Part shown: positions 11,096-64,000 of the stretch, piece after piece
Numbering within the stretch: the stretch's first letter is position 1
How the letters are laid out: each line of letters starts with the position of its first letter
Program-made: the position numbers and the translations under genes
Assembly: GCF_026914265.1 (NCBI RefSeq)
Contig: NC_069135.1
Location: 823,001-887,000, forward strand
Source of the DNA: Mya arenaria
Taxonomy: Eukaryota > Mollusca > Bivalvia > Myida > Myidae
Length of the DNA stretch: 64,000 bases
Direction: 5' to 3'
Notes under the pieces: generated by a model
The model's input: only the letters and a program-made list of their open reading frames with translations
Database searches by the model: none
Told to the model about the DNA's origin: nothing

Positions 11096-11589
11096 AAAAA
11101 AAATTAACAGAAAGAATATATCAGGGAAGATGTATCATTTTATCATTTCAGGAATACACGCCACAAATATGTGACATTTGGTTGCCTGGTGATCCCATAT
11201 TACTTTGGTTTAATAATAACTGGTTTTGGTGACAGAACAAGGTTTTACCGAAAATATAGGAAACGAGTTCTTTTTCGCCGTCAAATCTTGCACAATAGGT
11301 CATTTTACAGCCGATTTCAGATGAGATAAAGATCAAATATACAAACTTTAATAACTGTTTACGATGTACTTTCAGTCATTTATTTTACATATAAGAATTG
11401 GCAAGCAAAATTCTTTCAAATCATACCAAAATTGTTATGGAGTCACCAGGCATAAAGTTGGAAGACTTAAGTTAATGGAGCTACCAGAGAGCAAGCTTCT
11501 GGTGCACCGGATTTCATAAACAACTAACAACACTAAAGAAAAATAATATCCAAATGTTTTTATCCCAGTTGAATAAGTCGTTGTCTATA
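11096..11589. other. Short gene-free spacer between two minisatellites
   Basis: No supported gene; the 62-codon minus-strand ORF at 11148-11336 has no recognisable features. Confidence 0.4.
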
Positions 11590-17016: not shown

Positions 17017-17303
17017 GTTTTTACATATGTTCTGTTTTAAAATTAAACAATATGTTTGTTTTGTAATACATAAAGCAAGTGATCGCCTTCATCTTTAGTC
17101 ACAACACTGTCAAAACCACCTCACAGGTGCAAACGTGTACTTATTGGTATTTTCGATCAACTTTTCCAAAATGTTTTTTTTTTAAAGTTCACATTCCTTC
17201 TCTGATCCTTCGACATAACCCAGACTTGTCAAATAGCTGAGAATCTCAACACATGCAACTGGCAGTCAATCAGAATAACCCATGTTAAAGTAATAAGTGG
17301 TCT
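17017..17303 (-). other. Short spacer between RPP14 stop and the C1orf74-like ORF
   Basis: 287 bp with no canonical poly(A) signal on the minus strand and several upstream ATGs. A possible splice acceptor (tttaattttaaaacag) lies just before the ORF start, so a separate or alternatively spliced transcript cannot be excluded. Confidence 0.5.
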
Positions 17304-30408: not shown

Positions 30409-33400
30409 TCAGTATATTTTTCGGAATCGTTTGTTTTCGTCTTGAAGTCTGCTAATTTCCTCCAAAAGTTCTGGATTCAGTGAGTACTGCTCCAATAGAT
30501 GAACTATCTCACTCTGAAACAGAAAAATACAGGCTTACACTTACTCGCACTTGAGAAATGGTCAAGTAAGACCAAAAAACCAATATGGTCTAATTATTAC
30601 AATACTCAGGAGTCATTGAAGTTAGGCCGGTTCTCTATCTTTTCTGAGATGTTATGCCAGTAAATATTGTAACCAAGGTTGGTCAACATTGAATGAGTTA
30701 TGGTTAGGTTAGAGAACGGACAACTTCAATGGATACTGCCCTCTCTATGTGATCCCATGATACGTCAGAATAATGTGTAATATGGTTAGATACCTGTAAC
30801 TTGAAGAACTCCACCAACATTGCAGACTGGAGGTTGACAATGTCTCTGTGAAGTTGATCCACTGTTTCTTCCAGCTCGTCCCTGAACACACCCCTCATCT
30901 CTCCCTTAAATGAATTAAGTTCCTCCTGAACAACACTGCGTACAATCTGCGCAATTCTTGCCTCACTCAAGTTTGTACTCAAGGATTTCTGTTTATGATC
31001 TGTGTAGGTGTCACTTTTGTTGGAACCTTCAGACTGAGCACTAACACCTTCTGGTGTAGTAGGGTAGTGTTTTTCAGCACCATTTGCACCTTCTTGAGAG
31101 TTTCCTGAAGAGTCACCAAAGTGCACAGTGGGTAATGAAGGTGAAGCACTGATTCCTACTTGATGGTTTTCAGAGAGTCTGGATAAATCCGGGCTTCTGT
31201 GACTATTAGAAAACTGTGGACTGCCATCGCTGTCTGAGACTGGGTAGGTACGGAGCTCTGCATTAATAAAGGGAACAGTTTATCCTTTATGTAACAATAT
31301 CTTGGTTTTCTCAGCATGTTTACATTTCATTAACTATGAAAATGTGTAACTTTTTGTAAATATAAAATAAATATTGTAAGACAAATACATTACCAACATT
31401 AGCATAGCGAGTTTTGACGTTTCGGCAGTTCAGGCTTAATACTTGTACAATGAAACTAATGTCAATTTTAATGTAGCTTGAAAAAAAACTGTAACTTTAC
31501 ATTTTAATGCCTAGCAACATTAATTAGGACAACTCGCATAAGCATATATTCTTAAGCATTCAAATAAATATTACCATTATCAAATGCTACTTGTTTTTGG
31601 TGGGAATGTTGTCTTTCATTATTGTGTGCTGAAAAGTTGACATTTCTTGCATTTGTTGCTTTGCTGGTGTGATCAAACACTGTATCCCCATTGGTCAGAC
31701 TAGTGTGAGGGAGCGGGTCTGTGATGTGGTATTTGGTGGTCTGAGGTGTGGCACCGAAAATGTTTATCTGAGGGGCTGATACCTACAAACACAAACAAGA
31801 CCCTGTTAAAGCGCTTCAACACCAAGTGTCCATAAATAAAAAAATAACTGAATATTTAATTCAAAACATCAGTATACAAAGGTTTGATATAGATTTCCAA
31901 CAACAGCATAAACTCTTATGTATAAAAAAAACATTATTTGTATGTAAATCATGAGCTCAAATGTGGAAAAACTTTTTTTCTAATTTTGAAGTCCCTATAG
32001 ACAGTATTTTTTTTTTTTTTTTTTATTAAATCTTATAATCAAATAAAGAAGCTCATTAAACCACAGATGTGAAAATATTCACTTCAGTTGATATCTTATT
32101 AAAACAGCTTTATCTACTTGTGTGTTGATTCTGTTCTCAATTGATGTAAGGACAGGACTTTTCCTGATCTGGGTTGCCGGAGAGCCATAACCCGGGTAGG
32201 CCAATGGGGACAACCCTGCACCACTGGAGTCTCTGCCACCTACAGGGTCATGGAGAGGGGAAAACACTCCACCTGTAACAGTGCGAGAAAATCAAACTGA
32301 CTTTAATGCTTATGACTCAGTGATGTGTATATGTTCATGTGCCATTATTGATGACTTGATTATATCTTCCCTGCTAAGCTTAAAGCTGCACTCTCACAGA
32401 TTGAACGTTTTGACAATTTTTTATTTATTTTTGTCATGGAACGCGCCAATTTATGCAAAAATGCATGTTTACCATTCATATAAGACTGCTGACAAAAAAT
32501 GAGTCAGATTTTTCTATTCAAATAAAAATGATGTTTTATGCATTTTTCTTAAACTGTTAGTAAACCTTGAAGACATAAAGCATTAGTTTTCGAACTGAAA
32601 TATGAAAATCTGCGATCTGATCTTTTGTCAGCAATCTTTTATTACTGGTTTGCAGATATTTATGCAAAAATTTCCTCATTCCAAGACAAAAAATAAAAAA
32701 GTTATAAAAACTGTATCTGTTAGAGTGCAGCTATAAAGAAACCTTTGGTGACAGTTGGGGCTAAAAGTCAAAATATGTTTCTTGATATACCAGGACTTAA
32801 GACTCTGGTAAATGTCGCTCAATAACTGAAAAAGTTAACACTGGTCATTTCTTGTCACTTCACCAACGTAGCACATTTATTCCAAATACTCAGTCAGGGC
32901 TTATTAACTGGGAATTCTTTTCAGTTATTTCCATCAAATAACAAACTTGTGTTCCTCAAATATCACATCTAAGTGAATCATACACCCCACCCCACCTGCA
33001 TACATGTCCCCAGATGTCTGCCTGAGGGCCCCAGAGCTACTGACCAACCCCTCACTGCTGCCCCGAGACTCGGAATCCTCACCTCCGCTGTCCTGGAAAC
33101 CTGTAGAAAACCAGACAACTTATTAGTATATACATGACTGAAACAATGGATTGAGACACACGATCTAAAATACACTGAATATGGCACAGGTATCTCATAT
33201 CAACATACTGGATGTTAAAACTTTTGACGACATTCATGAGTATCTTATTTTGCAAGAAAAAGGAAAGTGATGTGCATGCGTACAGTGAGATTCACTTACA
33301 AATATCTTATATCTTTATAGGTATTGTATAACAAGAGGGCCATAATGGCCCTGTATCGCTCACCTGTAGTTTTTGACCTGGGTTGACCCAATATAGAACT

Positions 33401-36400
33401 TGACCTAGCTTATGTTAAGATGATCATTCTGACCAAGTTTCATTAAGATTAGGCTAAAATTGTGACCTCTATTGTGTTTACAAGGTTTTTTTACTATCTG
33501 ACCTAGTGACCTAGTTATTGACCGCGGATGACCCAATGTGGAACTTGACCTAGATTTTATAAAGATGATCAGTCTGACCAAGTTTCATAAAGATTAGGCT
33601 AAAATTGTGACCTCTATTGTGTTCATAAGGTTTTTCTAATATCTGACCTAGTGACCTAGTTATTGACTGCGGATGACCCAATATCGAACATGACCCAGAT
33701 TTTATAGAGATGATCATTCTGACCAAGTTGCATTAACATTAGGCTAAAATTGTGACCTCTATTGTGTTCACAAGGTTTTTCTACTAATTGACCTATTGAC
33801 CTAGTTATTGACGGTAAATGACCCAATATCGAACTTGACCTAGATTTTATAGAGATGATCATTCTGACCAAGTTACATTTAGATTAGGCTTAAGTTGTGA
33901 CCTCTATTGTGTTCACAAGGTTTTTATACTAATTGACCTAGTGACCTAGTTATTGATCGCGAATAACCCAATATCGAACTTGACCTATATTTTTCTAGAG
34001 ATGATCATTCTGACCAAGTTGAATTGAGTTAAGCCTAAAATTGTGACCTCTATTGTGTTCACAAGGTTTTTCTACTAATTGACCTAGTGACCTAGTTATT
34101 GACCCCAGATGACCCAATATCGAACTTGACCTAGATTTCATAGAGATGATCAGTCTGACCAAGTTTCATAAAGATTAGGTCAAAATTGTGACCTCTGTTG
34201 TGTTCACAAGGTTTTTCTTATAATTGACCTAGTGACCTAGTTATTGACTGCGGATGACCCAATATCGAACTTGACCTAGATTTTATAGAGATGATTATTC
34301 TGACCAACTTGCATTGAGATTAGGCTAAAATTGTGACCTCTATTGTGTTCACAAGGTTTTTGTACTAATTGACCTAGTGACCTAGTTGTTGACCGCGGAT
34401 GACCCTATATCGAACTTGACCTACATTTTATAGAGATGATCATTCTGACCAAGTTGCATTGAGATTAGGCTAAAATTGTGACCTCTATTGTGTTCACAAG
34501 GTTTTTCTACTAATTGACCTAGTGACCTAGTTTCTGACCTGGGTTGACCCAATATGGAACTTGACCTAGCTTATGTTAAGATGATCATTCTGACCAAGTT
34601 TCATTAAGATAAGGCTAAAATTGTGACCTCTATTTTGTTCACAAGGTTTTTCTAATAATTGACCTAGTGACCTAGTTATTGACTGCGTATGACCCAATAT
34701 CGAACTTGACCCAGATTTTATAGAGATGATCATTCTGACCAAGTTGCATTAAGATTAGCCTAAAATTGTGACCTCTATTGTGTTCACAAGGTTTTTGTAC
34801 TAATTGACCTAGTGACCTAGTTATTGACCGCGGATGACCCAATATCGAACTTGACCTAGATTTTATAGAGATGATCATTCTGACCAAGTTGCATTGAGAT
34901 TAGGCTAAAATTGTGACCTCTATTGTGTTCACAAGGTTTTTGTACTAATTGACCTAGTGACCTAGTTATTGACCGCCGATGACCCAATATCGAACTTGAC
35001 CTAGATTTTATAGAGATGATCATTCTGACCAAGTTGCATTGAGATTAGGCTAAAATTGTGACCTCTATTGTGTTCACAAGGTTTTTCTACTAATTGACCT
35101 AGTGACCTAGTTATTGACCGTGAATGACCCAATATCAAACTTGACCTACATTTTACAGCGATGATCATTCTGACCAATTTGCACTGAGATTAGGCTAAAA
35201 TTGTGACCTCTATTGTGTTCACAAGGTTTTTCTACTAATTGACCTAGTGACCTAGTTATTGACCGCGGATGACCCAATATCGAACTTGACCTAGATTTTA
35301 TAGAGATGATCATTCTGACCAAGTTGCATTGAGATTAGGCTAAAATTGTGACCTCTAATGTGTTCACAAGGTATTTCTACTAATTGACCTACTGACCTAG
35401 TTTTTGACCCCAGATGACCCAATATCGAACTTGACCTAGATTTCATAGAGATGATCAGTCTGACCAAGTTTCATAAAGATTAGGTCAAAATTGTGACCTC
35501 TGTTGTGTTCACAAGGTTTTTCTAATAATTGACCTAGTGACCTAGTTATTGACTGCGGATGACCCAATATCGAACTTGACCCAGATTTTATAGAGATGAT
35601 TATTCTGACCAAGTTGCATTGAGATTAGGCTAAAATTGTGACCTCTATTGTGTTCACAAGGTTTTTGTACTAATTGACCTAGTGACCTAGTTGTTGACCG
35701 CGGATGACCCAATATCGAACTTGACCTACATTTTATAGAGATGATCATTCTGACCAAGTTGCATTGAGATTAGGCTAAAATTGTGACCTCTATTGTGTTC
35801 ACAAGGTTTTTCTACTAATTGACCTAGTGACCTAATTATTGACCGCGGATGACCCAATATCGAACTTGACCTAGATTTTATAGAGATGACCATTCTGACC
35901 AAGTTGCATTGAGATTAGGCTAAAATTGTGACCTCTATTGTGTTCACAAGGTTTTTCTAATAATTGACCTAGTGACCTAGTTTTTGACCCCAGATGACCC
36001 AATATCGAACTTGACCTAGATTTTATAGAGATGATCAGTCTGACCAAGTTTCATAAAGATTAGGTCAAAATTGTGACCTCTATTGTGTTCACAAGCAATT
36101 GTGAACGGACGGACGGACGGACGGACGGACGACGGACGAAGAGTGATCACAAAAGCTCACCTTGTCACTACGTGACAGGTGAGCTAAAAATTGGTCTTAG
36201 TCTATAAAGAAAGTAAGAGTTCAAGTTAATACGATTCAATGCCACTGACACACAGTACCTTCCCTGAGTGGTGAGAAGACATCAATGTCCACATCAGAGC
36301 GTGGTGTCCGCAATTCAGACAGGGCTACACCAACATTTCGTGGAGAGGATGGAAGTTGTCGATGTTTCAGCTGTTTGTTGGCTGCACTGGTTGGTTTGCC

Positions 36401-39400
36401 ACTTCCTGACTCAGACTGGTAGAGAAGAAAATAGAGTTACAATTTAAAACTCCTATTTTCAAACATATACTTAGCTGATATGGCAGATATATCAATGTGG
36501 AGTGATGTTTTGTAAGCATAAAACTACAAGAAACACAAAATACGTCAATGAATGGAGAAACTAAACATTTACAAATCAAATTAATATAAAAAATTTAACA
36601 CAACAATGTCATGTGGCTAAACTTTTGTTTTAAACAAGCTGAAATGTATGCGCCCAAAAACCATCCACAATTTTATTCAAAATAACAACATTTATCAAGA
36701 GCACTGCAAGGCTGTTTTTTCAATTAACTAAAGGGGCAAAACTTGACTAATATGAAAGTCTACATTCACATGTGTGTAATGTCAATTTTGACATGAGCAC
36801 TAAGTTTCATTTGAATATCTGAAATTGTTTTTTGAGTTATGGCAAAGGTAAAAATGTTTTTGGCAAACTGACAATGCCAATGTTCCCAAAACATCAAGGG
36901 CTACGACACAATGCCATTACGGCCACCAACACCAAGGGCTACGACACAATGCCATTACGGCCACCAACACCAAGGGCTACGATACAATGCCATAACGGCC
37001 ACCAACACCAAGGGCTACGACACAATGCCATTACGGCCACCAACACCAAGGGCTACGACACAATGCCATTACGGCCACCAACACCAAGGGCTACGATACA
37101 ATGCCATTACGGCCACCAACACCAAGGGCTACGACACAATGCCATAACGGCCACCAACACCAAGGGCTACGACACAATGCCATTACGGCCACCAACACCA
37201 AGGGCTACGACACAATGCCATTACGGCCACCAACACCAAGGGCTACGACACAATGCCATTACGGCCACCAACACCAAGGGCTACGACACAATGCCATTAC
37301 GGCCACCAACACCAAGGGCTACGACACAATGCCATTACGGCCACCAACACCAAGGGCTACGACACAATGCCATTACGGCCACCAACACCAAGGGCTACGA
37401 CACAATGCCATTACGGCCACCAACACCAAGGGCTACGATACAATGCCATTACGGCCACCAACACCAAGGGCTACGACACAATGCCATTACGGCCACCAAC
37501 ACCAAGGGCTACGACACAATGCCACTACGGCCACCAACACCAAGGGCTACGACACAATGCCATTACGGCCACCAACACCAAGGGCTACGACACAATGCCA
37601 CTACGGCCACCAACACCAAGGGCTACGACACAATGCCATTACGGCCACCAACACCAAGGGCTACGACACAATGCCATTACGGCCACCAACACCAAGGGCT
37701 ACGACACAATGCCATTACGGCCACCAACACCAAGGGCTACGACACAATGCCATTACGGCCACCAACACCAAGGGCTACGACACAATGCCATTACGGCCAC
37801 CAACACCAAGGGCTACGACACAATGCCATTACGGCCACCAACACTAAGGGCTACGACACAATGCCATTACGGCCACCAACACCAAGGGCTACGACACAAT
37901 GCCATTACGGCCACCAACACCAAGGGCTACGACACAATGCCATTACGGCCACCAACACCAAGGGCTACGACACAATGCCATTACGGCCACCAACACCAAG
38001 GGCTACGACACAATGCCATTACGGCCACCAACACCAAGGGCTACGACACAATGCCATTACGGCCACCAACACCAAGGGCTACGACACAATGCCATTACGG
38101 CCACCAACACTCAAGGGCTACGACACAATGCTTTTACGGCCACCAACACCAAGGGCTACGACACAATGCCATTACGGCCACCAACACTAAGGGCTACGAC
38201 ACAATGCCATTACGGCCACCAACACCAAGGGCTACGACACAATGCCATTACGGCCACCAACACAATGCCATTACGGCCACCAACACCAAGGGCTATGACA
38301 CAATGCCATTACGGCCACCAACACCAAGGGCTATGACACAATGCTATTACGGCCACCAACACCAAGGGCTACGACACAATGCCATTACGGCCACCAACAC
38401 CAAGGGCTACGACACAATGCCAACACCTTCACTTACACCAACGGCTTAGGCTTTGATACAATGCCAACACTGCCACCAAGACTATGCAACAGTGCCAACA
38501 CCCCACCAACTCTAAGGCTATGACATGATACCAACACGGCCATCAACATCGAGGCTATGACATGATACCAACACGGCCATCAACATCGAGGCTATGACAT
38601 GATACCAACACCAACTCTAAGGCTATAACATGATACCAACACGGCCATCAACATCGAGGCTTTACATGATACCAACACCAACTCTAAGGCTATAACATGA
38701 TACCAACACGGCCATCAACATCGAGGCTATGACATGATACCAACACGGCCATCAACATCGAGGCTATGACATGATACCAACACCAACTCTAAGGCTATAA
38801 CATGATACCAACACGGCCATCAACATCGAGGCTATGACATGATACCAACACCAACTCTAAGGCTATAACATGATACCAACACGGCCATCAACATCGAGGC
38901 TTTACATGATACCAACACCAACTCTAAGGCTATAACATGATACCAACACGGCCATCAACATCGAGGCTTTACATGATACCAACACCAACTCTAAGGCTAT
39001 GGCATTACATTGAATACCAACACCACCAAGGCCCAACAAGGCTATGACATTACTTTAACATGAGTTCTTCAGACAGACAAGCTACTAGGCGGAAACGCTC
39101 ACCTTAGCTTCCGTCTGAAACCGGAGGCCCTGGACTGAAGACTTGTGAGCATCTAGGAAATTTACTGGTACAGAGGCCATACGGAGGTCATAGTTGAGGA
39201 TTTGACCCCTTGTTGTACCCACGGCAATGGTTATACCGTTACTCATGGTGTCTATAGAGGTCAAGGGGCTGTCGGTGTTGATCACCTTCACAACCCTAGA
39301 GGGAAAAATGAGCATACCCATTACATGATGAAGCCAAAGTATTTCACCTCCTTTCAATCATAAATCTTCCAATAACTTCATTTCTAATCTATTTGGTGTC

Positions 39401-49460: not shown

Positions 49461-52400
49461 ATGACTGTAGAAGATGAAGGACGTTTGGTTGATCGGGAAC
49501 TGAATCGGTAAGATTTGAAGTACTGTATTAAATTAACTCCATTTGATAAACTGTCTCAGGGATTAGAAGACTTGAAACAATAACTCAAAAAGTATGATAG
49601 CTAAAATGTATGCTAAGATTTCAAGTTGTTATTTAGATCATGGGTTATTACAACCATGACAACAAAACAATAATACCTTAACAAACGATGTATATATAAT
49701 ATATATATATATTGTATAGAAACAAAGTGAACATACATTTATATAGTTTCCTAAAATAAAAAGTACTAAGTCTAAGACAAAGAAGTTATTTTGTTTTAAA
49801 GGAGAACGACTATTTGACAGATATATGGCCTTTAAGGGTCTTAAAAATAAATCCATTTTACAAGTTCTTGTTTGTATTTACTGTTCATCAATTGATCTAA
49901 CTCAATACAATTAGAGTTTTGACAAAGTACAATTTAAAACATATCTTTCTATCATTTGATAAAAGTTGACATTCAAACAATATTAAGTAATAAAATCCAT
50001 TACCTAAAAGAGTACTACTACACAAGTGACATGTTCCCAATATTTTGACCACGACCTACTTCATTATAAAATTTGTGATTCATAATTCTAAATTTTAGCA
50101 AATACATTGAAATATTCTTTGGTAGTATTTCAATACAGCTTCCAAACACATAATTTAAACCTTCTTGTATACTTTGTACATACGACATTTTTAATCCTAA
50201 ATTACTGAAAGTATTCTTATCAAATAAAAGCCATGGGAACTTAATGCAAGAGGTAACGTAATTGTGCAAAAAAATATGCAGTATTATACAGTAAGTGACT
50301 AATTTTGCTGCTACTAACATCAGCAGAATTCACTATTTTACTCCAAAAGGTGTAACCTAGTTTAAGTAAGAAATGCTAGAGAAGTCCATGTCCGATCGGA
50401 AAATAGCTTCATGTCAGAAAATAGCTCATGTTGGAAAATAGCTCATTGAGCAAATGTTTCTTGTTAACACATACCCGACCTTAAATAAAGATTCTTGTAT
50501 CTTGCTTTTCTTCATTACAATATTTATTTAACAATCGCCAAAAAGCTTTGGGATCAGAATGACCAATAATTTATATAAAATAATAAACAGTTTATTTTTA
50601 ACCCATTTGAAAGTACAAATTTTCTTATAATTCATTAATTTCTTATAAGATTTACTTTTTTATGAAATGAGCTCTAGCATCTTTACAATCATTACGAACT
50701 GAAAGTTTTAATAGACTCTTTAAATTACTCCTTCAGAAATGGTCATTTAACACCACTTCAAAAACAAGGTATAATCTCTCTTATTCCAAAACGAGATAAA
50801 GACTTAGAAAACCTTTCAAACTGGAGACCAATCAGCTTATTAAACACTGATTATAAGATAGCAACGAAGGCAATTTCGAACAGAATAAAAAAAGTTTTAC
50901 CTGAACTTATTGATAACGAACAAACGGGCTTTATCAAAGGCAGATATATTGGTGAAAACGTTCGTCTAATAGTTGAGGTCATGCAATACCTTGAAGAGAA
51001 TAATATGCCCGGACTCCTGTTTTTCGCCGACTTTCAAAAAGCCTTTGACAGCGTCGACCACTCTTTTATATTAGACAGTTTGAAAACTTTAAATTTTGGC
51101 TCGGATATAATACAATGGACAAAACTCTTCTACAACGATATACAAAGCATAATAACGAACAATGGTCATTTGTCTGAAACATTCCAAATTGAAAAAGGGG
51201 TAAGACAAGGATGTCCACTCTCATCGATTTTATTTATTATCTGCTTACAAATACTGTCTAGCAATATAAAACAAGATACCAATATTAGGGGAATCAAAGT
51301 TATCAATACGGAAATCAAACAATCGCTTTTTGCTGATGATGCAACTTACTTTATTGATGGTTCTGAGAAATCTTTCGAATCCTTGATCAAATCATTAGAG
51401 TCCTTTTCTAAATGCTCTGGCCTAAACCTCAACATTAATAAATGTATAATCCTAAGAGTGGGAACGTTAAAGAATACTACAATTAAATTATGTCAATCTA
51501 AATCCTTTGTATGGACTTCAGAATATGCGACAGCGTTAGGCATCACATTCTACAATAACAAGCAACAAACAATCGACACAAATATCAACAAAAAGCTAAA
51601 CGAACTACATAAGACATTAAAACAATGGGAACATCGAACACTAACTTTGTTGGGTAAAGTAACAGTTGTAAAAACGTATGCGCTACCAAAGATAATATAT
51701 CCATTTACCGTGCTGGCGAATCCAAGCAAACCCGTTATTGAAAATGTTAAAAGGGCTATCTTCAAATTTATATGGGATGGGAAGCCAGACAAAATAAAAA
51801 GACAAATACTGTATCAAAATTACGAATATGGAGGATTAAAACTAACAAACATTGAACATTTTCTTGACTCAATAAAAGCGTTATGGGTTAAACGATACTT
51901 GGATGATAATAATAAAAGCCAATGGAAAATCTTCTTTAAAAATAAACTGAAAGCACATGGCAACCAACTAATATTTGAATGTGAAATGGATAAATATTTC
52001 ATTGATAAAGTGTCAGGACAATGTGCATTTCTGAACAATGTGCTTGAAGCATGGAGCAAAATAAAACAAGTTTACGATCTAAATAAAATAAAAATAGCCA
52101 AAACAGTTATATGGAATAACAAAAACGTCCAAAACCTAGGAAACACACTTTTCTACAAACATTGGTATGAAAAGGGTTTAAAACTTTTTGAACACATTTT
52201 CGATTATAGAACCAATAATTTTTATGTTTTTAATGAAATTGAATATCTATACGGCATAGTAAACACCGATTTCATAAGATATCAGACCCATATTAAATCT
52301 ATTTCTGCAGAAACGAAACAACAGCTGATAAAAGATGGAATTAACCACATAAACGGCACGTCGCTTCGAGAAAAAATGGTAGAATCTAGGCAAAGAAATA

Positions 52401-55400
52401 ATATCCTGTACTTAATATTGAACAAAGCAACAATTTCATCGCCAGCTTCAGAATTAAAATGGAATGAAGCCCTGGAAGAAAACATTGAGTGGAAAAAAAT
52501 ATACTGTAATATATACATATCTACAATAGATACTACGTTACGTAGCTTTTACTACAAATTTCTTTTAAGGACAATACCAACCAACAAACTGCTTTTTAAA
52601 TTGAAACTTGTCGATTGTAGCTTATGTACATTCTGTAACTCGGGTATTGAATCTATTGAACATTTATACTGGGAATGTTACAAGACACAACAATTATGGA
52701 ATAAATTAAACAACTTCATAGCTTCAACAACAATTAACATAATTATAGGTAAACGCGAAGCTTTATTGGGAACAGTGACAAAAAAACAAATACAACAACA
52801 TATGCAACTTTCTTATTATTCTTATGAAATTTTATATACATTCAACCAAGTATAATAAAAGAACACTATCCTTTGATGCATACTTGAAGTATTTGAGATT
52901 AAGGATTAAAATAGAAGAACAAATTGCGTTGAACAATGACAAACTTGAAACCCACAACAAAAAATGGGAAGTACTTAAACATACAATATAATTCAACAAT
53001 AAAAAGACACAATTAGCCATACAAAGAACTCTTAGACTTAAAAAAACAACAACAACATTAATGGAATCTAATACAGGGGACACCGATCGTATAAACATCA
53101 TACGATCGGGTGTGTATGAAATGTGTATGTGTGCGTGCGTGTGTGCGCGTGTGGGAGCGAGTGTTTGTGCGTGTGCATGTGTGAGAGCATTATTGTTTCT
53201 GAATATATGTTTTCCTATCAACATACATAGATTTGTTGTATATGTTGAGAATTTAAAACTGTACTGATATATGTATCTATGTAAAAAAATAAATGAGAAA
53301 AAAAAATCATTACGAACTGGTGGTTCATTAACAATTTTCTTCTGTAACAACAATTGAGATTTATCAGCAGCATCAGTTGAAATATTTGAAACACTATTTG
53401 TCAACTTATTAACAACATCAACAGTATACTGTTTACTCATACTTAAGTATCTATTTCATCTGCCAAAGCAGTGATCTTTAACTCATCAATGTGACTTAAA
53501 AATTTATGTTTTGCATTATTATCCCATATTGGTATATTTACAACATTATCAATGGAATCAGCAACAGTATTAACACTATCAGTACCTTGATGTAATGACA
53601 TATTAATACTAAATTATACACAAGAGTGATTATCAGAAAACAATGAATCATGTTCCTGTACCTCAAAATTCTTGGAAATAATTCCGGCGATAGCAAAACA
53701 TGATCTAAAAGAGTACTGCTAATACATATGCAATGACCAATATCAATATCTTTGCCTAGCTATATATAGGTAAGCAGACTTACATAGATCTATCAAACGA
53801 TAACCATAGACTATGATAGTTATTTGGAGCATGAGAATCACGTGAACATCGTTCTACTGAACACGAAACTCGGTTTGTGGATGGAGGGCCATAACAGGTC
53901 ATGCTTGTCATTTGTTTTGTCGGACAAAATGTGTGGTCGGTATGGCAACGGCCATAGTGAAAATTCTTGACTGGACCTTGGCATCATGAAACTTGGAGAG
54001 GACCGAAAATACCACTTTTTAACTTGATTTGGCATAAAAGATACATTCATGAAACTTAGTACATGTATGTGATTAGAAGGCCATAATGACATTATACATG
54101 GCGTTTTATTGTGTTGTCGGACAAAAATGTGGTTTAAATGACAACAAGTAGTTTTTATGACAACAAAAAATACGCTGAAAAAGTGGACCACTGTGATATT
54201 TTGTTTGCAAGTGGTTACTGAACAATAAGGAATGTTCGTACATCATTTAAAATCAATTACTATAACAACATTACCGTAATGATAATATTGTAGTGCAAGG
54301 TATATTCACTGTCTTGTTTCTTTTCTTTTCAGTGATTCAAATATTGTTCAAGATGAAAAGAAATTTGAACATGATGTTTTTCTCATATACGCTGGCAAGG
54401 ATGAAGATATTGTGAGGAAAATACATAAAGGTTTGTCAGAAGATCTCAAGCCTGGTCTGCAATGTGCAGCACAGTTTGACCCGCGTACCTTTCCAACAGG
54501 GAGACCTGTGATGGCAAGTATATCAAAACTGATCAATACATCACATCGAACAGCTCTCGTCTTAACCCAACATGCTCTAGAAAGTCCCTGGATCAACTTG
54601 GAAACGATTCTTGCCATAGAGCAATCACAACACAGACAAGATAATGATTTAACTCTGAGGCTGCTCCTGGTTAACATTGAAGAATCAGAAGTTAAACGTT
54701 TGAAACGAGGACAGTTTAAGACAATACCTCATATTCCCGTGGATTTGAATGATGTCAATTGGCAGGAACGTTTGAGAGAACGGTTATTTGGTAGGTTTTT
54801 TGTTTGGTACAATTCATGTTTTGTTAAATTCAACGAAAACTACAGGGGTAAGCTTAGTAGTATAACATCAAATATAAATCATATTTCGAGCCCCGAGCTA
54901 AGGAAGGGCCCAAACAACCGTATATTGTTACATGAACTCCGACAATAAACAAATATTAACTTGACTTAAAAGACACCGGCAAACGTAATAAATCACAGCC
55001 AACATACCACACACGCATCAACATAGCTTAACCGTTAAATGTTGTTCAGGAGAACACGACTTTACTGGGTATGTCAGTGGCCATGACCTCACTCTATCCC
55101 CAACAATAGTATTACCAATTATATTTTTTTAAACAAATGTGAATATGAATCATAGCGATACCTTAAATCGATACTTCTTCATTCAACCATTGCATGCTTT
55201 TTAAGCTGATTAAATGTTGCTTGTATCTACAGCAATGCTACATAAATGTTGCTCTTTTTTCTTACAGAGCCCATTCAAGTACATGACATTTTGCCTGTTG
55301 GTAGTTTGGCGCATGGGCTTGTGTTTTCCCACTTCAACGGCTTCTTGTCCTACGTAATCAAACGTATGTGTTGCTGTGTATCTTTGTGTATTTAAAACGT

Positions 55401-58400
55401 TTTAAGAAAATTTAAACTTACACAAAACAAATGGCCTTCCATACACACATGGCATCTAAGAGGATAACTAATAAGTGGTCTTATTGGTATCCATTTGGTT
55501 CAGTTTGACTACTATCTAATGTTATTATGTCCAACATGTTGAAACCTTCAAACGTTGTAGTTTTCATACACCGCTCACATGTTTATTCCAACAGTTGAAG
55601 CTTAATGTGCATTTTATTTCAGATCTACCGGGTGGTCTAGAGAGGCATCCCATGTACAAAGAGTTCTCCGAACATTTCTGTAGAAAGTACAATATGCTTG
55701 TTCCGTTGTCGTGTAAAACGTTGAACTCATTAGAAGGCACAGATGAAAACACCGGCATTACAATTGAAAAAGATGGCGATAGTATTGAATTCAAAGTGAA
55801 TCACATGGGGAAAGAAAGGACCATGAGCATTACAGTCTACAAAATATCCAAGGGAAACGAATTCTACTTCTTTTTTGCCGACATGCCACAAGTTTTGAAC
55901 TGTATCTACCAGCTGTGGGATCTTGGAGTGAGTGGGGTTGATTGCCTGTTGCAAGTGGAAAGATTCAAGCACACTTATAACAAGGTCGTGAACCATGCTG
56001 ATTTCTCTTTGGAAGGCTATGACACGTTTAGAATGTTAGATTATGATGGTATGTATTAATTGTTGCAGTGATCAGGTCACAGTTGTATGTAACGTGATTT
56101 TAGTACACGTAATTTAAACTTGAAATTGAAATTTAGTCTTTATTCGCAGCACTCTCAACCAGTCTGACCAACAATAGCGGTGTTTTGGTCCATTGTATTT
56201 TAAAGCCGTAGTTGAATACAGACCTCGAGATAATCATTGTACAGGACTGTATATCATAATTTGAGCACCGATTTGAAGAAATGTTAGGACACATGGCGTT
56301 AACGTGGGATAAATACGTCGACGTTTGTTATGTCAATGTGTCTGTGGTTTGGTATGATGTCATCATGAGATACTTTCAAGTTTTTTTGAATTTTCTATAT
56401 ACTAGTATGTAAAACATGATACTATAACATAATAAAATAAACCCATGTTTGACGCGATTCATTTCGCCCAACATTGGTGAGGTATGTAATAAGCCAAATA
56501 AGATATTAAGAAAATATAATGTGTGAACAATTTAATTATTATCCGTTTAAAGATTGAAAAATATCAGAGGCTGGCAATATTCTATTATGCCTCAACAATT
56601 TATTAATAACTTTAAAGTTTATGCATACATGTATACAGTTTGTAAATATTTGCAGATAAAACCACTACTCACTTCGAGAAACTGTTTGAATCTGTGAAGA
56701 AAAGTGTTGCTGATGACAACCGGGCCAGGAAAGAAGTTAAGAAAAGTGGAAAACCTTGGGTTAGACAGGAATCTGACCAGGTCAGTTTCATAGCCCATCT
56801 ATTTATTTTGTTAAAAACATGATGTCATCGTCGGGCAGATTTTTGCTTGAACATCTTTGGATATGCTTGCATCAAACTCGCTACATGAACACAGTTCAAT
56901 GAATGACAATTCATGAACAAACGTCAATAATAATTGATTGGTTTGCACATAACTATTAATTCTTTTTTCGAAACAAATGAGCTTGGCCATATAGCTTACT
57001 TACCTAGCATGTTCGTAAACGAGAATACCTTTTGGGGTAAACATTTTGTATTTTAGGTAACAGAAGGTGTGCTTGTTTCCTGTGTTGAGGATTCCGTCGA
57101 GGACAGGAAAGTTGCTGAGCAAATAGTTGAGTATCTGGAAGAGAAAAAAGTCAAAGTGGCGCTAGGCAGTCAGTGTGTTGGATCTCTTTCACAAATCGCA
57201 AACTCCTATAAATGGTACGTGTTTGTTTTCTCAGAGGATGCCATGCGATCACATTCCTTGACATTCAACTGCATTCAACTGTTGGGCAATAGTGTGTCGG
57301 ATAATGAGGTAAAAGTTATTCCTGTGTTGAACAATATAAGCATAGAGGAATTGCCAACTTTTGTACGCTGGGTGACACTGCTGACGACTTCGGATAAGAA
57401 TTACTGCGAACATCTTTACGACACGATCAGAGGTATGTGCGCTATCTTTCAAATGGACACGTTCGAAAATATGTTAAACATTGAAATTACCAATACAAAA
57501 AAAGTTATTATAATGGTAAATTGTATTGAAATCAACCGTATTGCAATTGAAAGATTGATGGTATTTTGAATGATTGGTGGTATTTTGTAAGACTGGTGGT
57601 ATTTTGCAGGGGGTCCTGTTACAATGGAAGAACGCATGCCGGCTGGTGATGTGGCCACAGGTCTGTGCTGGGCGTACCTTGTCAATTACCTGAAGTATAC
57701 ACTGTTTACACTAGCTGTAGTGGAGGATGGGGAAAGGCGTTTAAAATTGGGTAAATACTTGATGTTTAGTGATCTTGAATATTACTTTGAATGTTAAATT
57801 AGTTGATATATGATAAAAATTGTTGGACACAGTGTAAAAATAAGCTTAATATTAGTAGCCAGCGGGAAAAAAATGATGTCAGTAATGTATTTTTATATGA
57901 TATTTAATTGAATTATCCCTTATAAGTCAAGTCGTCGTCGGCAACCTTGATACATAAAAACCGTTGGACAGTTGACTGAAAACATCTCGTTTAAAACAAT
58001 AAGAATGAGGCAGGGGAAACAACTCGCGTTCCACTGAAGTCTCATGTTACAATTCTCCAATAACCCTTTCGTGACACTGGCCTCCATGGCCGAGTGGTCC
58101 TGTCTGCTGTCTAAAAAATACTGAAAAGGCGGACCCGCGGTCCAATTCCGGCTTTTGTCAGAATATTTTACTACGGGAAAGCATTTGGTATCGTGTGGAA
58201 CCAATAAAACTGCTTTTTCATTAATGATATATGTTGACGAGATTTGCTGGCCAAATCACCCACGGTACACACCGAAGCACCGCGTAGTAGTGGAGTATCC
58301 GACGATGTGATCCAGACAGACATCGACATATATCATATTCACTGGGGTTTTCTCATAATCCTGAACTTAATACAGAACGGGTTTCCAATCATAAATTCAT

Positions 58401-61400
58401 TGAGGTTCTTTTCGGTTTGGGTCTTCTTTTATCTTCATATTATTATTGGCTAAAATAATTTGCCATATGATAAAACACTTGAAGACTAGTGAGCCATTGA
58501 TTATGATGTGATATTTACTTGCAAACAGTCATATTGACCTCGGCTGTATGACTTTCTGCCAGTTAATATCAGGTCATCCAGTACTTAATGGCTCACCAGT
58601 CAGTAATTGTATCTTATTGTCAGATTTTCTAAAACAAAAGCAGATGTATTGTCGTTGATATTGGTCTTGGGGTCGTTTTTTCTTTGAGTTTTCTTTGAGT
58701 CGTATAAATAAAATGATGTTGGCAAGTCCTGTCCTTCTGGTGAAAATATAACCCAAGGTGATGCCCATTGGTTAACTGTGGAAACGGACTGGCGTTGGCA
58801 TTGATCAGCTGGCGATACTCTTTCAATTTAATATAGACAGTTTACGTCCGAAATTAAAGTGCATTAATTATCTTTTGAAATGTGTAATGTTGTGTAAATG
58901 CCCGTCCATTTTGCTTTGCAGATTTTGTTCGAAGGATCAGAAAATTCTTGAAAGACAGGAACATTAGAAATGGTTGTTTGGACAAGGTTTGCATCTTATG
59001 CCCGGCTTCATGTGAAACACCAAACGAGATAGCTGAAGAGGCAAATGAAGGGTATTCGTTTGTGGAAAAAATGTTGTTGTTTTTATAAGTTTGCCGTTTC
59101 CATAGTTAAAATGACACTCACATTCAAAAAATCAATACATTCAGATGTATAACAAACTTTAAACAAAGTGAAACATAAATATTGAGTGATAAACCTTTAA
59201 CCACTTACTGAAAAATGCATTTATGGAAAATATATATTACTGATAACAATATTATAACCGTGTATTTAATAGCTGAAAGGGCAAAAAAATAAATGATTGG
59301 TGAATGCTAAAAGATTAACTGCGATCTACTATCTTCCAAATTAAACTCGGTGTCCTTGATAAGCACCATTGTTTTCGACATATGTTCATCCTGTTGGTAT
59401 AGCAAATCAATTGTATTAAATGTGTTAAATCTTATTTGGGAGTAAGAGCGCATCTGGAAGATGGAAATACTTCTCATATAAAACAGGGTCGGTATTATTA
59501 GAAATAAAAAAGGGATTGTTAACATACATTGCAGATAAAGTTATCGGAAGAATTATCAAAATGACGAAGTATGTATGTACTTTGCCTTTACTAAATTAAA
59601 TTTGTTTTCTTTATCAAAACGATCATTTAAATGCCAGTGATAACATTTGGAACTTTCGACCATTTTCCATCGAAAACAACCTCGTTCCTATGCCGGTACA
59701 TCAATAATAGTAGTTCGTGATTTTTTTTAATGAATTGTAGTGTCACAGTTAACGAGTATTTTGAACATCTAAGTTTATAAATTTATGGGCATTGAAGTTT
59801 ATTATTGGATTAATTAATAAGATTCAAAAGAGTAATGTCTTAAATTTTAACTGCTAAATTGAAATTACTACGCGATCTTCTTGCTGCATAGTTAACTGTT
59901 AAAACAACCCGACTGTTAACCGTCCATATACGTCCTGAGGTTGACTTCAATGGGAAATGACTGAGGATTTCCGAATGCAGTGAAAATAGTTTCAGGTATA
60001 TTCATCACATAAGAGGTTCATTGATATATTTTTAATATTTAGGTTATATCCTTCTGATAATTTTATTTTAATGGATAAAGTGAGTATGTTTTTAAACAGG
60101 GCAACAAATGGACAGGGAAGGCTGGAGAAAGTTGGACAGTTGCTACCAGTCTTTGCCAACACCGGGGGACACATTGACAGGGTGTTCAGTCTGTACGTGT
60201 ACAAGTACCACAACGAGAAAACACAGAAGGTAACCATGACTTTTCCAAACAAATGCAATGAATCTAATCACTGGCAAAGGGATATTATACAACGTATTGT
60301 AGAAGTACCAAAATGAAGAAAGTAAACAAAATTTATAATTGTTTTTTTCGCGACATTTTATATTTTGAAATAAATGTGACTTTGCCATTATAGTGTCGCA
60401 TGATAAGCATGTCAGCGATATAGGGACTGTAATGTCCGGCATTGTCGCTCGCCTTTTTGCCGTCACACGCATGTACGGTCACTTGGACGTGTTGGTGTAG
60501 ACTCTTCAAACTTGGTGTGCACCTTGGTCATGGTCAGTGAATGAACGCTTTTAAAGGTTAAGGTGACCTTTACTTCAACAATTCAACACGCTTTCGTTTC
60601 CATTCAATACATTTTGATCGAATTGATGTTAGGTGTTCTTCAGACTTGCTTGGTATGCACATTGACTATGGTGTGTATATGGCCGCTATTTATTTAATGG
60701 TCAATAGGTCATGGTGACCTTTACTAAAAAGCAGATTCGCGGAATTCTTGTTCACGTTATGGTGTTGAAAAAGAACTATTCGTCAGAGAAAACATTGAAC
60801 AAAATTTAATCGTAAAGCGCTATATGAGAAACAGTATCGAAATTTATTCCAAAAAGCCCAAAATAAACATGGTAAAACTGATGGTTTTCAAGTTAACTTT
60901 CTCATTTCAGACCGTTTACTTTGTCACCGAGGTTTGTACTCCGTTTGGATGTCTGCACCAGATGGCTTCCAAATTCCCGTTTGCTGGTTTAACAGCCGAA
61001 GACAAAGTCAGACAGGGTGAAAAGTTTGTAAACACGTACCGAGAAATAACTTCTCTACAGGCGGTGAAAGAAAAGTTTGGCGACTTTGAGAAATACACAA
61101 CACTGCTGTACTACAAAGGTTAGACATAGTATTTGTTAAAGTATATCACGGATTCATTTGTGGTTTAAAAACTTTATATAAATAAAACATATTTTTACTA
61201 GCACAGTGTGTGTCTGATGAAAGGTTCGTGTACATAGTTAAAAGCACATTTTAGTTTCACGCGCAGAAAACACTTTCTGGACTAGATTTCAACAATTGTT
61301 TTTTATCATATTTCGAAACATTGTTAATGAAGGTTTACATGTAAATTGACAGTAAATGCATGTGTGTAGTGTTTCCCCGCAAATTACGCGTTTATTTGTT

Positions 61401-61557
61401 ATCCTATTTTTTGACAGAGCCGACGACATTGATGACTGTCATTGAAGAGACGCTACTTGAAGAGACCGGGTTTATTTACAAGGAACTTGTTCGGCGTGAT
61501 TCTGATCCTGATATTCCTTTGCGTTCTGTTGCTGAGCCGGAAACCTCAACCGTTTGA
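49461..61557 (+). CDS. Tandem TIR-STING-TIR-STING fusion protein, 11 exons
   Basis: Exons: 49461-49507, 54333-54790, 55268-55363, 55623-56048, 56656-56780, 57057-57432, 57610-57750, 58922-59051, 60100-60229, 60911-61118, 61418-61557; all GT/AG, phases continuous, 758 aa. TIR1 about 27-165 (HDVFLIYAGKDED; FPTGRPV loop; W102 and E106 in SPWINLE). STING1 about 176-384 (VGSLAHGLVFSHFNGFL; R266). TIR2 about 385-510, diverged, no W...E. STING2 about 520-725 (GDVATGLCWAYLVNYL; IDRVFSLYVYKY; TEVCTPFG; LLYYKEP). STING binds cyclic dinucleotides; NADase-type TIRs cleave NAD+; TIR-STING fusions are known in oysters. There is no transmembrane STING N-terminus, so the protein should be cytosolic. The start is the first ATG of an exon that splices in phase to TIR1. 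STING identity is strong; ligand and activity are inferred. Confidence 0.92.
49990..50330 (-). pseudogene. Second decayed LINE endonuclease fragment
   Basis: A minus-strand open stretch of about 100 codons ends in EVGRGQNIGNMSLV followed by an STLL-like continuation after a stop. It resembles the same endonuclease region as 53440-53760 (GKDIDIGHCICISSTLL there), so it is probably another relic of the related family. Confidence 0.4.
50702..52855 (+). pseudogene. LINE ORF2 fragment: reverse transcriptase and C-terminal region
   Basis: The frame is open from the very first base of the insertion for 717 codons. Reverse-transcriptase motifs in order: LIPKRDKDLENLSNWRPISL, NEQTGFIKGRYIGEN, LFFADFQKAFDSVD, GVRQGCPLSSILF, and the catalytic FADD in LFADDATYF (near 51329). 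Then the LTLLGKVTVVKTYALPK and KFIWDGKPDKIKR blocks typical of L1/Tx1-type elements. The N-terminal endonuclease is missing because of truncation. After the stop at 52855 the C-terminal homology appears to continue in another frame (RTLSFDAYLKYLRL) to about 52990, so a one-base frameshift near 52820 is likely. It cannot be an autonomous element. Confidence 0.9.
50702..53304 (+). mobile_element. 5'-truncated L1/Tx1-like LINE with 15-bp target duplication
   Basis: The target duplication AATCATTACGAACTG is perfect at 50687-50701 and 53305-53319. The element between starts mid-ORF2 (typical 5' truncation) and ends in an A-rich tail. The 3' UTR holds a near-perfect hairpin (53080-53113) and a GT-rich simple stretch (53100-53185). 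It sits in intron 1 of the TIR-STING gene in the same orientation, inside an older minus-strand LINE relic. The perfect duplication and long open frame argue for a recent insertion. Confidence 0.9.
53440..53760 (-). pseudogene. Older minus-strand LINE relic (endonuclease end and linker)
   Basis: Minus-strand translation shows the C-terminal end of an endonuclease/exonuclease/phosphatase domain, STLLDHVLLSPELF, then after a frameshift SKNFEVQEHDSLFSDNHSCV. A linker leading towards KDARAHF continues on the far side of the young LINE (about 50660-50700). The young element thus split this one. Confidence 0.6.
53838..54190. repeat. Two decayed ~180-bp tandem units in TIR-STING intron 1
   Basis: Both share catgaaact/cacgaaact, agggccataa/aaggccataa and gttttgtcggacaaaatgtg/tgttgtcggacaaaaatgtg. 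No ends of a mobile element are visible. Confidence 0.55.
58073..58155 (+). repeat. tRNA-Leu/Ser-like SINE fragment
   Basis: An A-box TGGCCGAGTGGTC (58087-58099) and a degenerate B-box GGTCCAATTCC (58139-58149) lie with spacing like a long-variable-arm tRNA. The stems do not close, so this is a tRNA-derived relic in TIR-STING intron 7. Confidence 0.5.
60440..60740. repeat. Dispersed-repeat relic with ggtgacctttact words
   Basis: Two units about 160 bp apart share cttcaaacttggtgtgcacc/cttcagacttgcttggtatgc and aaggtgacctttact/atggtgacctttact. It lies in TIR-STING intron 9. Confidence 0.5.
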
Positions 61558-62304: not shown

Positions 62305-63140
62305 TGTGTGTGATTATTGTTTATACAAGTGTGTCTCTAGTTTACTGTCCCCTGGGCCATTGTTTATACAAGTGTGTCTCTAGTTCACTGTCCCCTGGGC
62401 CATTGTTTATACAAGTGTGTCTCTAGTTCACTGTCCCCTGGGCCATTGTTTATACAAGTGTCTCTCTAGTTCACTGTCCCCTGGGCCATTGTTTATACAA
62501 GTGTGTCTCTAGTTCACTGTCCCCTGGGCCATTGTTTATACAAGTGTGTCTCTAGTTCACTGTCCCCTGGGCCATTGTTTATACAAGTGTGTCTCTAGTT
62601 CACTGTCCCCTGGGCCATTGTTTATACAAGTGTGTCTCTAGTTCACTGTCCACTGGGCCATTGTTTATACAAGTGTGTCTCTAGTTCACTGTCCCCTGGG
62701 CCATTGTTTATACAAGTGTGTCTCTAGTTCACTGTCCCCTGGGCCATTGTTTATACAAGTGTGTCTCTAGTTCACTGTCCCCTGGGCCATTGTTTATACA
62801 AGTGTGTCTCTAGTTCACTGTCCCCTGGGCCATTGTTTATACAAGTGTGTCTCTAGTTCACTGTCCCCTGGGCCATTGTTTATACAAGTGTGTCTCTAGT
62901 TCACTGTCCCCTGGGCCATTGTTTATACAAGTGTGTCTCTAGTTCACTGTCCCCTGGATCATTGTTTATACAAGTGTGTCTGTAGTTCACTGTCCCCGGG
63001 GCCATTGTTTATACAAGTGTGTCTCTAGTTCACTGTCCCCTGGGCCATTGTTTATACAAGTGTGTCTCTAGTTCACTGTCCCCTGGATCATTGTTTATAC
63101 AAGTGTGTCTGTAGTTCACTGTCCCCGGGGCCATTGCGTT
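62305..63140. repeat. 43-bp minisatellite, about 19 copies
   Basis: Unit gtttatacaagtgtgtctct plus agttcactgtcccctgggcc plus att, nearly invariant apart from a few ccactgg, ggatcatt and tctgtagtt variants. One two-unit block (ggatcatt followed by ccccgggg) is repeated near the right end, showing recent local duplication. Confidence 0.95.
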
Positions 63141-63154
63141 GTGCCTCGTTACAG

Positions 63155-64000
63155 GGTTTTTTATTATACCCCCACAAACGAAGTTTGAGGGGGTATATAG
63201 GAGTGAGCTTGTCGGTCGGTCTGTCGGTTTTCATGGTTTCCGGACGATAACTCATGAAAGGCTAGACAGATTTGAAAAAAAAATTGGTACACAGATGTAA
63301 CATCAGAAGATACAGGTCAAGTTCGATATTGGGGCTGGTGGGGCCAAGGTCAACGTAACTGTTACTAAAAATAGAAAAACGGTTTCCGGACGATAACTCA
63401 TGAAAGGCTTGACAGATTTGAACAATTTTAGGTACACAGGTGTAACATCAGAAGATACAGGTCAAGTTCGATATTGTGGCTGGTGGGGCCAAAGTCAAGG
63501 TCACTGTTACTAAAAATAGAAAAACGGTTTCCGGACGATAACTCATGAAAGGCTAGACAGATTTGAACAATTTTTGGTACACAGGTGTAACATCAGAAGA
63601 TACAGGTCAAGTTCGATATTGGGGCTGGTGGGGCCAAGGTCAAGGTCACTGTTACTAAAAATAGAAAAACGGTTTCCGGACGATAACTCATGAAAGGCTT
63701 GACAGATTTGAACAATTTTTGGTACACAGGTGTAACATCAGAAGATACAGGTCAAGTTCGATATTGGGGCTGGTGGGGCCAAAGTCAAGGTCACTGTTAC
63801 TAAAAATAGAAAAACGGTTTCCGGACGATAAATCATGAAAGGCTTGACAGATTTGAACAATTTTTGGTACACAGGTGTAACATCAGAAGATACAGGTCAA
63901 GTTTGATATTGGGGCTGGTGGGGCCAAGGTCAATGTTACTAAAAAAAAAAAAAAAAACGGTTTCCGGACGATAACTCATGAAAGGCTTGACAGATTTGAA
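63155..64000. mobile_element. Tandem-core element C (145-bp monomers), cut by the window end
   Basis: Opens with a hairpin (tatacccccacaaac/gtttgagggggtata) and gtcggtcggtctgtcgg, then at least five monomers of exactly 145 bp (for example ggtttcc at 63526 and 63671). Monomers carry ggtttccggacgataactca, acaggtgtaacatcagaaga and ggccaaggtcaaggtcactg. The right end lies outside the window. Confidence 0.88.

What the first reader, a model, noticed from the sequence alone, without database searches (positions are those of the whole stretch)
49461..61557. A single gene encoding TIR-STING-TIR-STING in tandem
Eleven exons splice in phase into a 758-aa protein with two TIR and two STING ligand-binding domains in alternation and no transmembrane STING N-terminus. 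Single TIR-STING fusions are established in oysters; STING and NADase TIR are both established as immune modules. A covalent tandem would make a built-in pseudo-dimer, since STING works as a dimer and TIRs act by self-association. I cannot tell from here whether this architecture has been described.
Basis: partly seen in the sequence, partly recalled or inferred. Interest (0 to 1): 0.93.

Follow-up and report, generated by a model that had tools for sequence, protein, structure and literature searches.

The report
Double TIR-STING immune sensor in clams
A soft-shell clam gene carries two copies of the TIR-STING immune sensor fused head to tail in one protein, the two copies have diverged in a fixed way shared by related clams and the zebra mussel, and this suggests a natural single-chain, lopsided version of a receptor that elsewhere works as a pair of identical chains.

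Summary
Eleven exons at 49461-61557 splice in phase, all GT-AG, into 758 aa, with TIR 31-161, STING 182-346, TIR 398-493 and STING 523-716. Both STING domains pass Pfam's cut-off; the second TIR alone does not (21.6 of 28 bits), but profile comparisons support it. The genome is Mya arenaria. Eight tandem proteins, one truncated, occur in Mya, Dreissena, Ruditapes and Mercenaria, so the fusion is old and not an artefact. Three introns sit at the same places and phases in both halves: a whole TIR-STING unit was duplicated. The halves then diverged in a fixed way. TIR1 keeps the catalytic-type Glu in 7 of 8 proteins; TIR2 lacks it and the BB loop in 7 of 7. The two STING pockets carry different invariant residues. 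I read it as a single-chain, asymmetric TIR-STING pseudo-dimer with one degenerate TIR. The intramolecular pairing is inferred, not shown; NADase activity is undecided. Ten literature searches, some with capped lists, showed no description. New variant of a known kind (oyster TIR-STING).

The parts
49461..49507 (+). exon 1, start codon, N-terminal tail (aa 1-15)
   Evidence: also present in P0001 and similar in paralogue P0002
54333..54790 (+). exon 2, TIR1 (TIR_2 aa 31-161), keeps W102..E106 and the BB loop
55268..55363 (+). exon 3, start of STING1 with the stem helix (aa 169-200)
55623..56048 (+). exon 4, body of STING1 (to aa 342), R266 (= human R238) and D287 (= human E260)
56656..56780 (+). 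exon 5, end of STING1 and the linker (aa 343-384)
57057..57432 (+). exon 6, TIR2 (aa 385-509), degenerate: no catalytic-type Glu, no BB loop
57610..57750 (+). exon 7, start of STING2 with the stem helix (aa 510-556)
58922..59051 (+). exon 8, STING2 (aa 557-599)
60100..60229 (+). exon 9, STING2 lid region with the R238 equivalent (aa 600-643)
60911..61118 (+). exon 10, STING2 with the E260/T263/P264 equivalents (aa 644-712)
61418..61557 (+). exon 11, end of STING2, C-terminal tail, stop codon
50678..52852 (+). LINE reverse transcriptase ORF inside intron 1, an insertion, not part of the gene product
   Evidence: RVT_1 134.7 bits, zf-RVT 32.5 bits

Best explanation
This is a cytosolic cyclic-dinucleotide sensor of the animal TIR-STING kind in which an oyster-type TIR-STING unit was duplicated within one gene, before Myida and Venerida split, and the two halves then became unequal. 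Most likely the two STING domains of one chain pair with each other into the V-shaped receptor that other STINGs form from two identical chains, so the ligand pocket is lopsided. TIR1 is the signalling-competent TIR. TIR2 is a pseudo-TIR that holds the shape or offers one assembly surface. Ligand binding would close the receptor and let TIR1 modules of neighbouring molecules stack and recruit partners. Shown: the architecture, the duplication, the fixed asymmetry. Inferred: location in the cytosol, pairing, ligand, TIR output.
For: Architecture. Family of eight tandem proteins (one truncated) in four genera. Unit duplication: introns 2/6, 3/7 and 4/10 are all phase 1 and fall in columns 177/176, 223/223 and 380/380 of the half-to-half alignment; 0 of 100,000 random placements matched all three. 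Before the Myida-Venerida split: 8 STING1 rows form one group and 7 STING2 rows another, support 100/99 or better (orders of Mya, Ruditapes, Dreissena). Fixed asymmetry: STING1 has G166 in 8 of 8, R238 in 8 of 8, Asp at E260 in 8 of 8; STING2 has Asn at G166 in 7 of 7, Y167 in 7 of 7, E260 in 7 of 7, R238 Arg in 6 of 7 and Lys in 1. TIR2 is about as conserved as TIR1: identity of the window protein to P0003, P0004, P0005, P0008, P0009 is 30-49% in TIR2, 28-53% in TIR1, 10-36% in the linker. The best solved relative by sequence of both halves and of both TIR profiles is oyster TIR-STING 6wt6.
Against: No structure of the chain's own pairing: AlphaFold2 gave mean pLDDT 69.2 and pTM 0.48, and no coordinates were available. 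Neither STING half keeps R232 or Y240 (0 of 8 and 0 of 7 each), so affinity for 2'3'-cGAMP may be low or the ligand different. The Ruditapes protein lost the TIR1 Glu. Between the two venerids P0005 and P0008 the linker (51%) is as conserved as TIR1 (49%) and TIR2 (53%), so the constraint argument rests on the more distant pairs. Pfam alone sees TIR2 in few relatives. The recombinant STING part of the oyster protein was reported to bind dsRNA and dsDNA (PMC8218723, passages), so a ligand other than a cyclic dinucleotide is not excluded. No RNA or protein data on this gene were available.
Confidence: 0.5

Rival explanations
1. Like pairs with like between chains: STING1 pairs with STING1 of another molecule and STING2 with STING2 of a third, so the tandem is a linker that makes chains or filaments rather than a closed pseudo-dimer.
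For: STING and TIR act through filaments in the bacterial TIR-STING (PMC9402430, passages). The linker between halves (aa 347-386) is variable between the window protein and its five more distant full-length relatives, 10-36%, as a flexible tether would be.
Against: The stem-helix residues at human positions 161, 163 and 166 differ between halves in a fixed way (STING1: F in 7 and Y in 1 of 8, H in 8 of 8, G in 8 of 8; STING2: W in 6 of 7, Y in 5 of 7, N in 7 of 7), which fits unlike partners better. This is an inference only. The linker is 51% identical between the two venerids.
Confidence: 0.27
2. Only one half binds ligand. The other STING and the BB-loop-less TIR2 form a regulatory or autoinhibitory module left over from duplication and since fixed.
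For: STING1 lacks the W161, R232, T263 and P264 equivalents in 8 of 8 and has Y167 in only 2 of 8, while STING2 keeps Y167 and E260 in 7 of 7. TIR2 has lost the Glu and BB loop in 7 of 7.
Against: The ligand-contact R238 equivalent is Arg in 8 of 8 STING1 domains, and an acidic residue holds the E260 place in 8 of 8; the oyster STING, of known structure with cGAMP, lacks T263 and P264 too. STING1 is somewhat better conserved than STING2 between the window protein and P0005, P0008 and P0009 (40-51% against 36-48%), though not between the two venerids (63% against 68%).
Confidence: 0.2
3. Two adjacent genes wrongly joined by the model, each a single TIR-STING.
For: Each half is a complete TIR-STING unit.
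Against: The same fused order is annotated in Mya paralogues, Dreissena, Ruditapes and Mercenaria. Intron 5 is 276 bp with no + strand AATAAA and exon 6 lacks an early Met. TIR2 is degenerate in 7 of 7 proteins examined, which a free-standing gene would not explain.
Confidence: 0.03

Closest known systems
Oyster (Crassostrea gigas) TIR-STING, PDB 6wt6/6wt7
   Same: N-terminal TIR directly before a STING ligand-binding domain; best PDB sequence match of both halves (E 1.6e-10 and 6.4e-9) and of both TIR profiles.
   Different: One unit, not two. Oyster has W161, Y167, R232, R238, Y240 and E260; here neither half keeps R232 or Y240. 17-21% identity over the Foldseek alignments.
Bacterial TIR-STING of CBASS (Sphingobacterium faecium)
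   Same: TIR then STING; there ligand-driven filament assembly activates a NADase TIR, which needs Glu 84 and an Asp from the neighbouring TIR (PMC9402430, passages).
   Different: The animal fusion is held to have arisen separately (PMC10732462, passages); single unit; the domain here is STING_LBD, not prok_STING.
Human and sea anemone STING
   Different: Membrane helices at the N-terminus there (recalled); none here, and TIRs instead.
TLR and MyD88 TIR domains
   Same: Next sequence matches of TIR1 after oyster TIR-STING are TLRs (E 4.6e-9 to 6.4e-8); TIR2's next are MyD88 at E 0.017-0.027, not significant.
   Different: Those sit on receptors or adaptors without STING. Plant resistance TIRs are close behind for TIR1 (Roq1 5.9e-8, RUN1 3.8e-7).

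Membership tests
animal TIR-STING | TIR domain directly N-terminal to a STING ligand-binding domain | tested here: met
   in both halves (TIR2 below its own Pfam cut-off; supported)
animal TIR-STING | a single TIR-STING unit per chain | tested here: not met
   two units per chain; hence filed as a variant
animal TIR-STING | pairing of two chains into a dimer | not testable with these tools
   no coordinates or multimer prediction available
animal TIR-STING | no N-terminal transmembrane helices | tested here: met
   hydropathy maximum 1.22; 7 of 8 proteins (window included) show none, Ruditapes P0005 has one C-terminal segment
STING | STING ligand-binding fold | tested here: met
   STING2 of P0001; STING1 of the Mercenaria relative P0006
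STING | lid Arg equivalent to human R238 | tested here: met
   Arg in 8 of 8 STING1, Arg 6 of 7 and Lys 1 of 7 in STING2
STING | binding of a cyclic dinucleotide | not testable with these tools
   needs protein; R232, Y240 and other contacts are changed
NAD-cleaving TIR | catalytic Glu in the WxxxE helix | tested here: inconclusive
   present in TIR1 of 7 of 8, absent in TIR2 of 7 of 7; TLR-type scaffold TIRs also carry such a Glu (recalled)
NAD-cleaving TIR | NAD cleavage | not testable with these tools
   none
bacterial CBASS TIR-STING | prokaryotic STING domain (PF20300) | tested here: not met
   only STING_LBD PF15009 matched in the window protein; among the relatives one sub-threshold prok_STING match (P0004, 17.0 of 27.1 bits)

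The most novel reading that the evidence does not exclude
A natural single-chain STING heterodimer: the two fused halves are fixed as unlike partners, each giving a different set of pocket residues, so one chain reads an asymmetric cyclic dinucleotide (2'3'-cUA, which oyster cGLRs make, or 2'3'-cGAMP) in one orientation, while one live and one BB-loop-less TIR give the assembly a direction or a stop. STING signalling would then no longer depend on two chains meeting.
Probability: 0.33. Interest if true: 0.86.

Novelty: new variant of a known kind. Interest (0 to 1): 0.68.

Why it matters
STING is known as a receptor of two identical chains closing on one ligand. A lineage that fused two units and let them diverge offers a natural test of which half does what: whether asymmetric ligands are read asymmetrically, whether one TIR suffices, and whether pairing can be fixed in cis. 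It also shows that animal TIR-STING, described as rare (PMC10732462, passages), was elaborated in heterodont bivalves, a group that includes Dreissena polymorpha, one of the bivalves reported to encode more than 200 cGLR proteins in one genome (PMC9980059, passages).

Tried and rejected
Two-gene model: rejected for the reasons under rivals. Bacterial or viral origin: PADLOC on two proteins gave weak matches, at best 16.8 bits for P0001 and 26.8 bits (ThsB, TIR-like) for P0009; the viral structure library gave two matches below E 0.001, with TM-scores of 0.12-0.17. Two equivalent NADase TIRs: rejected. First impression, in an early note, that STING1 is dead: withdrawn, since R238 and an acidic residue at E260 are invariant in it. 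My earlier wording that both TIRs look more like scaffolds than enzymes was too strong and is withdrawn: plant resistance TIRs match TIR1 about as well as TLR2 does. Origin of the halves from two different STING lineages: the tree's weak split (74/71), with oyster beside STING1 and human/anemone beside STING2, cannot exclude it, but three shared introns speak for one TIR-STING ancestor. Fusion of two neighbouring duplicate genes cannot be told from duplication inside one gene.

Count of STING genes in the window's genome: the genome search was unreachable six times. Single TIR-STINGs of other bivalves: the third protein search (5 hits of 4504 candidates) did not return even the oyster protein, so absence elsewhere means nothing. 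Pairing of the two STINGs in the predicted model: no coordinates available. Rfam at gathering scores and tRNA scan: nothing. A bacterial promoter/terminator scan of the exon 5-6 region is not informative for an animal gene.

Rows dropped before counts: P0001 (same gene as the window protein), P0007 (shorter, shares most of its sequence with P0003, taken as a second model of that gene), P0012 and P0013 (Dreissena fragments), P0014 (metagenome TIR fragment), P0010 and P0011 (TIR proteins without a STING match), and P0006 from counts that need its second half, which is truncated. The TIR profiles A6 and A7 hold six sequences each (P0002 and P0006 left out).
Full report
What is there. Domains by Pfam are TIR_2 at 31-161, STING_LBD at 182-346, TIR_2 at 398-493 and STING_LBD at 523-716. 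STING1 (32.2 bits) and STING2 (65 bits) pass the cut-off of 27 when each half is searched alone. TIR2 scores 21.6 against a cut-off of 28. In seven relatives Pfam counts two STING stretches in 7 of 7 but two TIR_2 stretches in 2 of 7. TIR2 rests on profile evidence: with TIR1, 94.1% and E 1.3e-7, against 0.2% and 1.5% for two TIR-STING control pairs, and a six-sequence TIR2 profile whose best and only PDB match below E 0.01 is oyster TIR-STING, E 1.4e-5. There is no membrane segment.

The public model is 7 aa shorter because it uses an upstream donor in exon 2.

It is a family. Protein searches found tandem proteins in four genera: Mya (the window gene, P0002, P0003, P0004), Dreissena (P0009), Ruditapes (P0005) and Mercenaria (P0008, and P0006, which is cut short in its second half). 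One search returned 7 hits among 7990 candidates, one search returned 10 among 7998, one search returned 5 among 4504; in the first two only the candidates sharing most words were scored. Mya and Dreissena are Myida, Ruditapes is Venerida; Mercenaria is a venerid too (recalled). The search needs shared exact words and did not return the oyster protein, so it says nothing about other bivalves.

How it arose. Introns 2, 3 and 4 of the first half and introns 6, 7 and 10 of the second are all phase 1 and fall in columns 177/176, 223/223 and 380/380 of the half-to-half alignment; in a 14-row alignment the columns are 314/313, 360/360 and 520/520. With uniform random positions and phases, 0 of 100,000 trials matched all three; this null is crude, but the match is hard to explain other than by common descent of the exons. 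So one TIR-STING unit was duplicated, by internal duplication or by fusion of two neighbouring copies. STING2 has two further introns. In a tree of 18 STING domains, 8 STING1 rows and 7 STING2 rows each form one group at 100/99 or better, so the duplication is older than the split of the four genera. The deep order relative to oyster, human and anemone is weak (74/71).

How the halves differ. TIR1 keeps Trp and Glu of the WxxxE motif in 7 of 8 proteins; Ruditapes has Cys and Gln. TIR2 has no Glu there in 7 of 7 (Asn, Gln or Lys) and shows a gap of 8 to 12 alignment columns where the BB loop of TIR1 sits in 7 of 7. Each STING half keeps a lid basic residue at human R238 (STING1 Arg 8 of 8; STING2 Arg 6 of 7 and Lys 1 of 7). 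Position 260 is Asp in 8 of 8 STING1 and Glu in 7 of 7 STING2. Position 166 is Gly in 8 of 8 and Asn in 7 of 7. Position 167 is Tyr in 2 of 8 and 7 of 7. Neither keeps R232 or Y240, 0 of 8 and 0 of 7. The numbering follows human STING, read from the printed piece of 9cua, a G230A/R293Q variant; which residues contact ligand is recalled, apart from R238, for which a passage of PMC9980059 was seen. The window protein is 30-49% identical to five more distant full-length relatives in TIR2, 28-53% in TIR1 and 10-36% in the linker; between the two venerids the figures are 53, 49 and 51%. So TIR2 looks kept by selection rather than decaying, on the evidence of the wider pairs.

How it probably works. 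In the bacterial TIR-STING, ligand closes the STING lid, dimers stack into a filament, and TIRs then touch and become NADases, with an Asp from the neighbour completing the active site (PMC9402430, passages). By analogy, a single chain here could form the closed receptor by itself. The unlike invariant residues at the dimer helix and pocket suit unlike partners, and cGLRs of oysters make the asymmetric 2'3'-cUA (PMC9980059, passages). The output is less clear. After oyster TIR-STING, TIR1 is nearest to TLR TIRs (E 4.6e-9 to 6.4e-8), which are scaffolds (recalled), but plant Roq1 (5.9e-8) and RUN1 (3.8e-7) and bacterial AbTIR (1.3e-5), which are or are named NAD-cleaving (partly recalled), also match. 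Ruditapes lacks the Glu. Sequence therefore does not decide between scaffold and enzyme. In the oyster, knocking down the single TIR-STING lowered TBK1, IRF and interferon-like transcripts, which points to signalling; the same paper found that its STING part bound dsRNA and dsDNA and did not place it downstream of cGAS (PMC8218723, passages).

Is it known? Ten searches of a 5.39-million-paper library gave no paper that, in its listing or in the passages I opened, describes a protein with two TIR-STING units. Several lists were capped: 20 of 42 papers, 30 of 37, 20 of 37, 15 of 4,444. Passages were seen in PMC10732462, PMC13142454, PMC9980059, PMC9402430, PMC8195603, PMC8905726, PMC8218723, PMC10855445 and PMC12424679; none was read whole. 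Morehouse 2020, the oyster structure paper, is not held, and most subscription journals are not either. Of the seven proteins, five carry NCBI names such as hypothetical or uncharacterized protein, P0006 is called stimulator of interferon genes protein-like and P0007 STING-like. PMC10732462 calls eukaryotic TIR-STINGs rare.

Verdict. The architecture is certain, the duplication is well supported, the asymmetry is clear, and the mechanism is inferred. It is a new variant of the animal TIR-STING kind.

Noticed in passing
window 50678-52852 (+): A 725-aa LINE reverse transcriptase ORF lies in intron 1 in the gene's own direction.
   Followed up: partly
window 16241-17088 (-): A 282-aa uninterrupted ORF matches DUF4504 (PF14953, 117.8 bits).
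   Followed up: no
window 62316-63136 and 63235-64000: A 43-bp minisatellite of 19 copies starts 0.8 kb downstream of the gene, followed by a 145-bp tandem array to the window's end.
   Followed up: no
window 7470-9192, 11581-13348, 33367-36095, 36890-38263: Large minisatellites with units of 46, 26, 145 and 38 bp; ORFs of 162 to 455 aa run through the last in three reading frames.
   Followed up: no
Mya arenaria proteins P0002 and P0004: These two tandem paralogues bear consecutive gene numbers (LOC128218978, LOC128218979) on a contig of the same length, so they are probably neighbours; the window gene and P0003 lie on contigs of other lengths.
   Followed up: no
Dreissena polymorpha protein P0009, aa 1-150: A third, degenerate TIR-like domain before TIR1 (TIR_2 17.8 bits, E 0.0049, below cut-off; hhalign to TIR1 79.9%, to TIR2 0.4%): possibly TIR-TIR-STING-TIR-STING.
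   Followed up: partly
Ruditapes philippinarum protein P0005, from aa 722: A strongly hydrophobic C-terminal segment (Kyte-Doolittle 3.08) that the other seven proteins lack, a possible membrane anchor.
   Followed up: no
P0001 (MAR_010777) against window 54770-54790: The public gene model omits 21 bases of exon 2 by using an upstream in-frame donor; this may be an error or a splice variant.
   Followed up: partly
P0014 (contig of 2866 bp, JGI source): A 192-aa TIR fragment 57% identical to TIR1 from a JGI source, probably animal DNA in an environmental sample.
   Followed up: no
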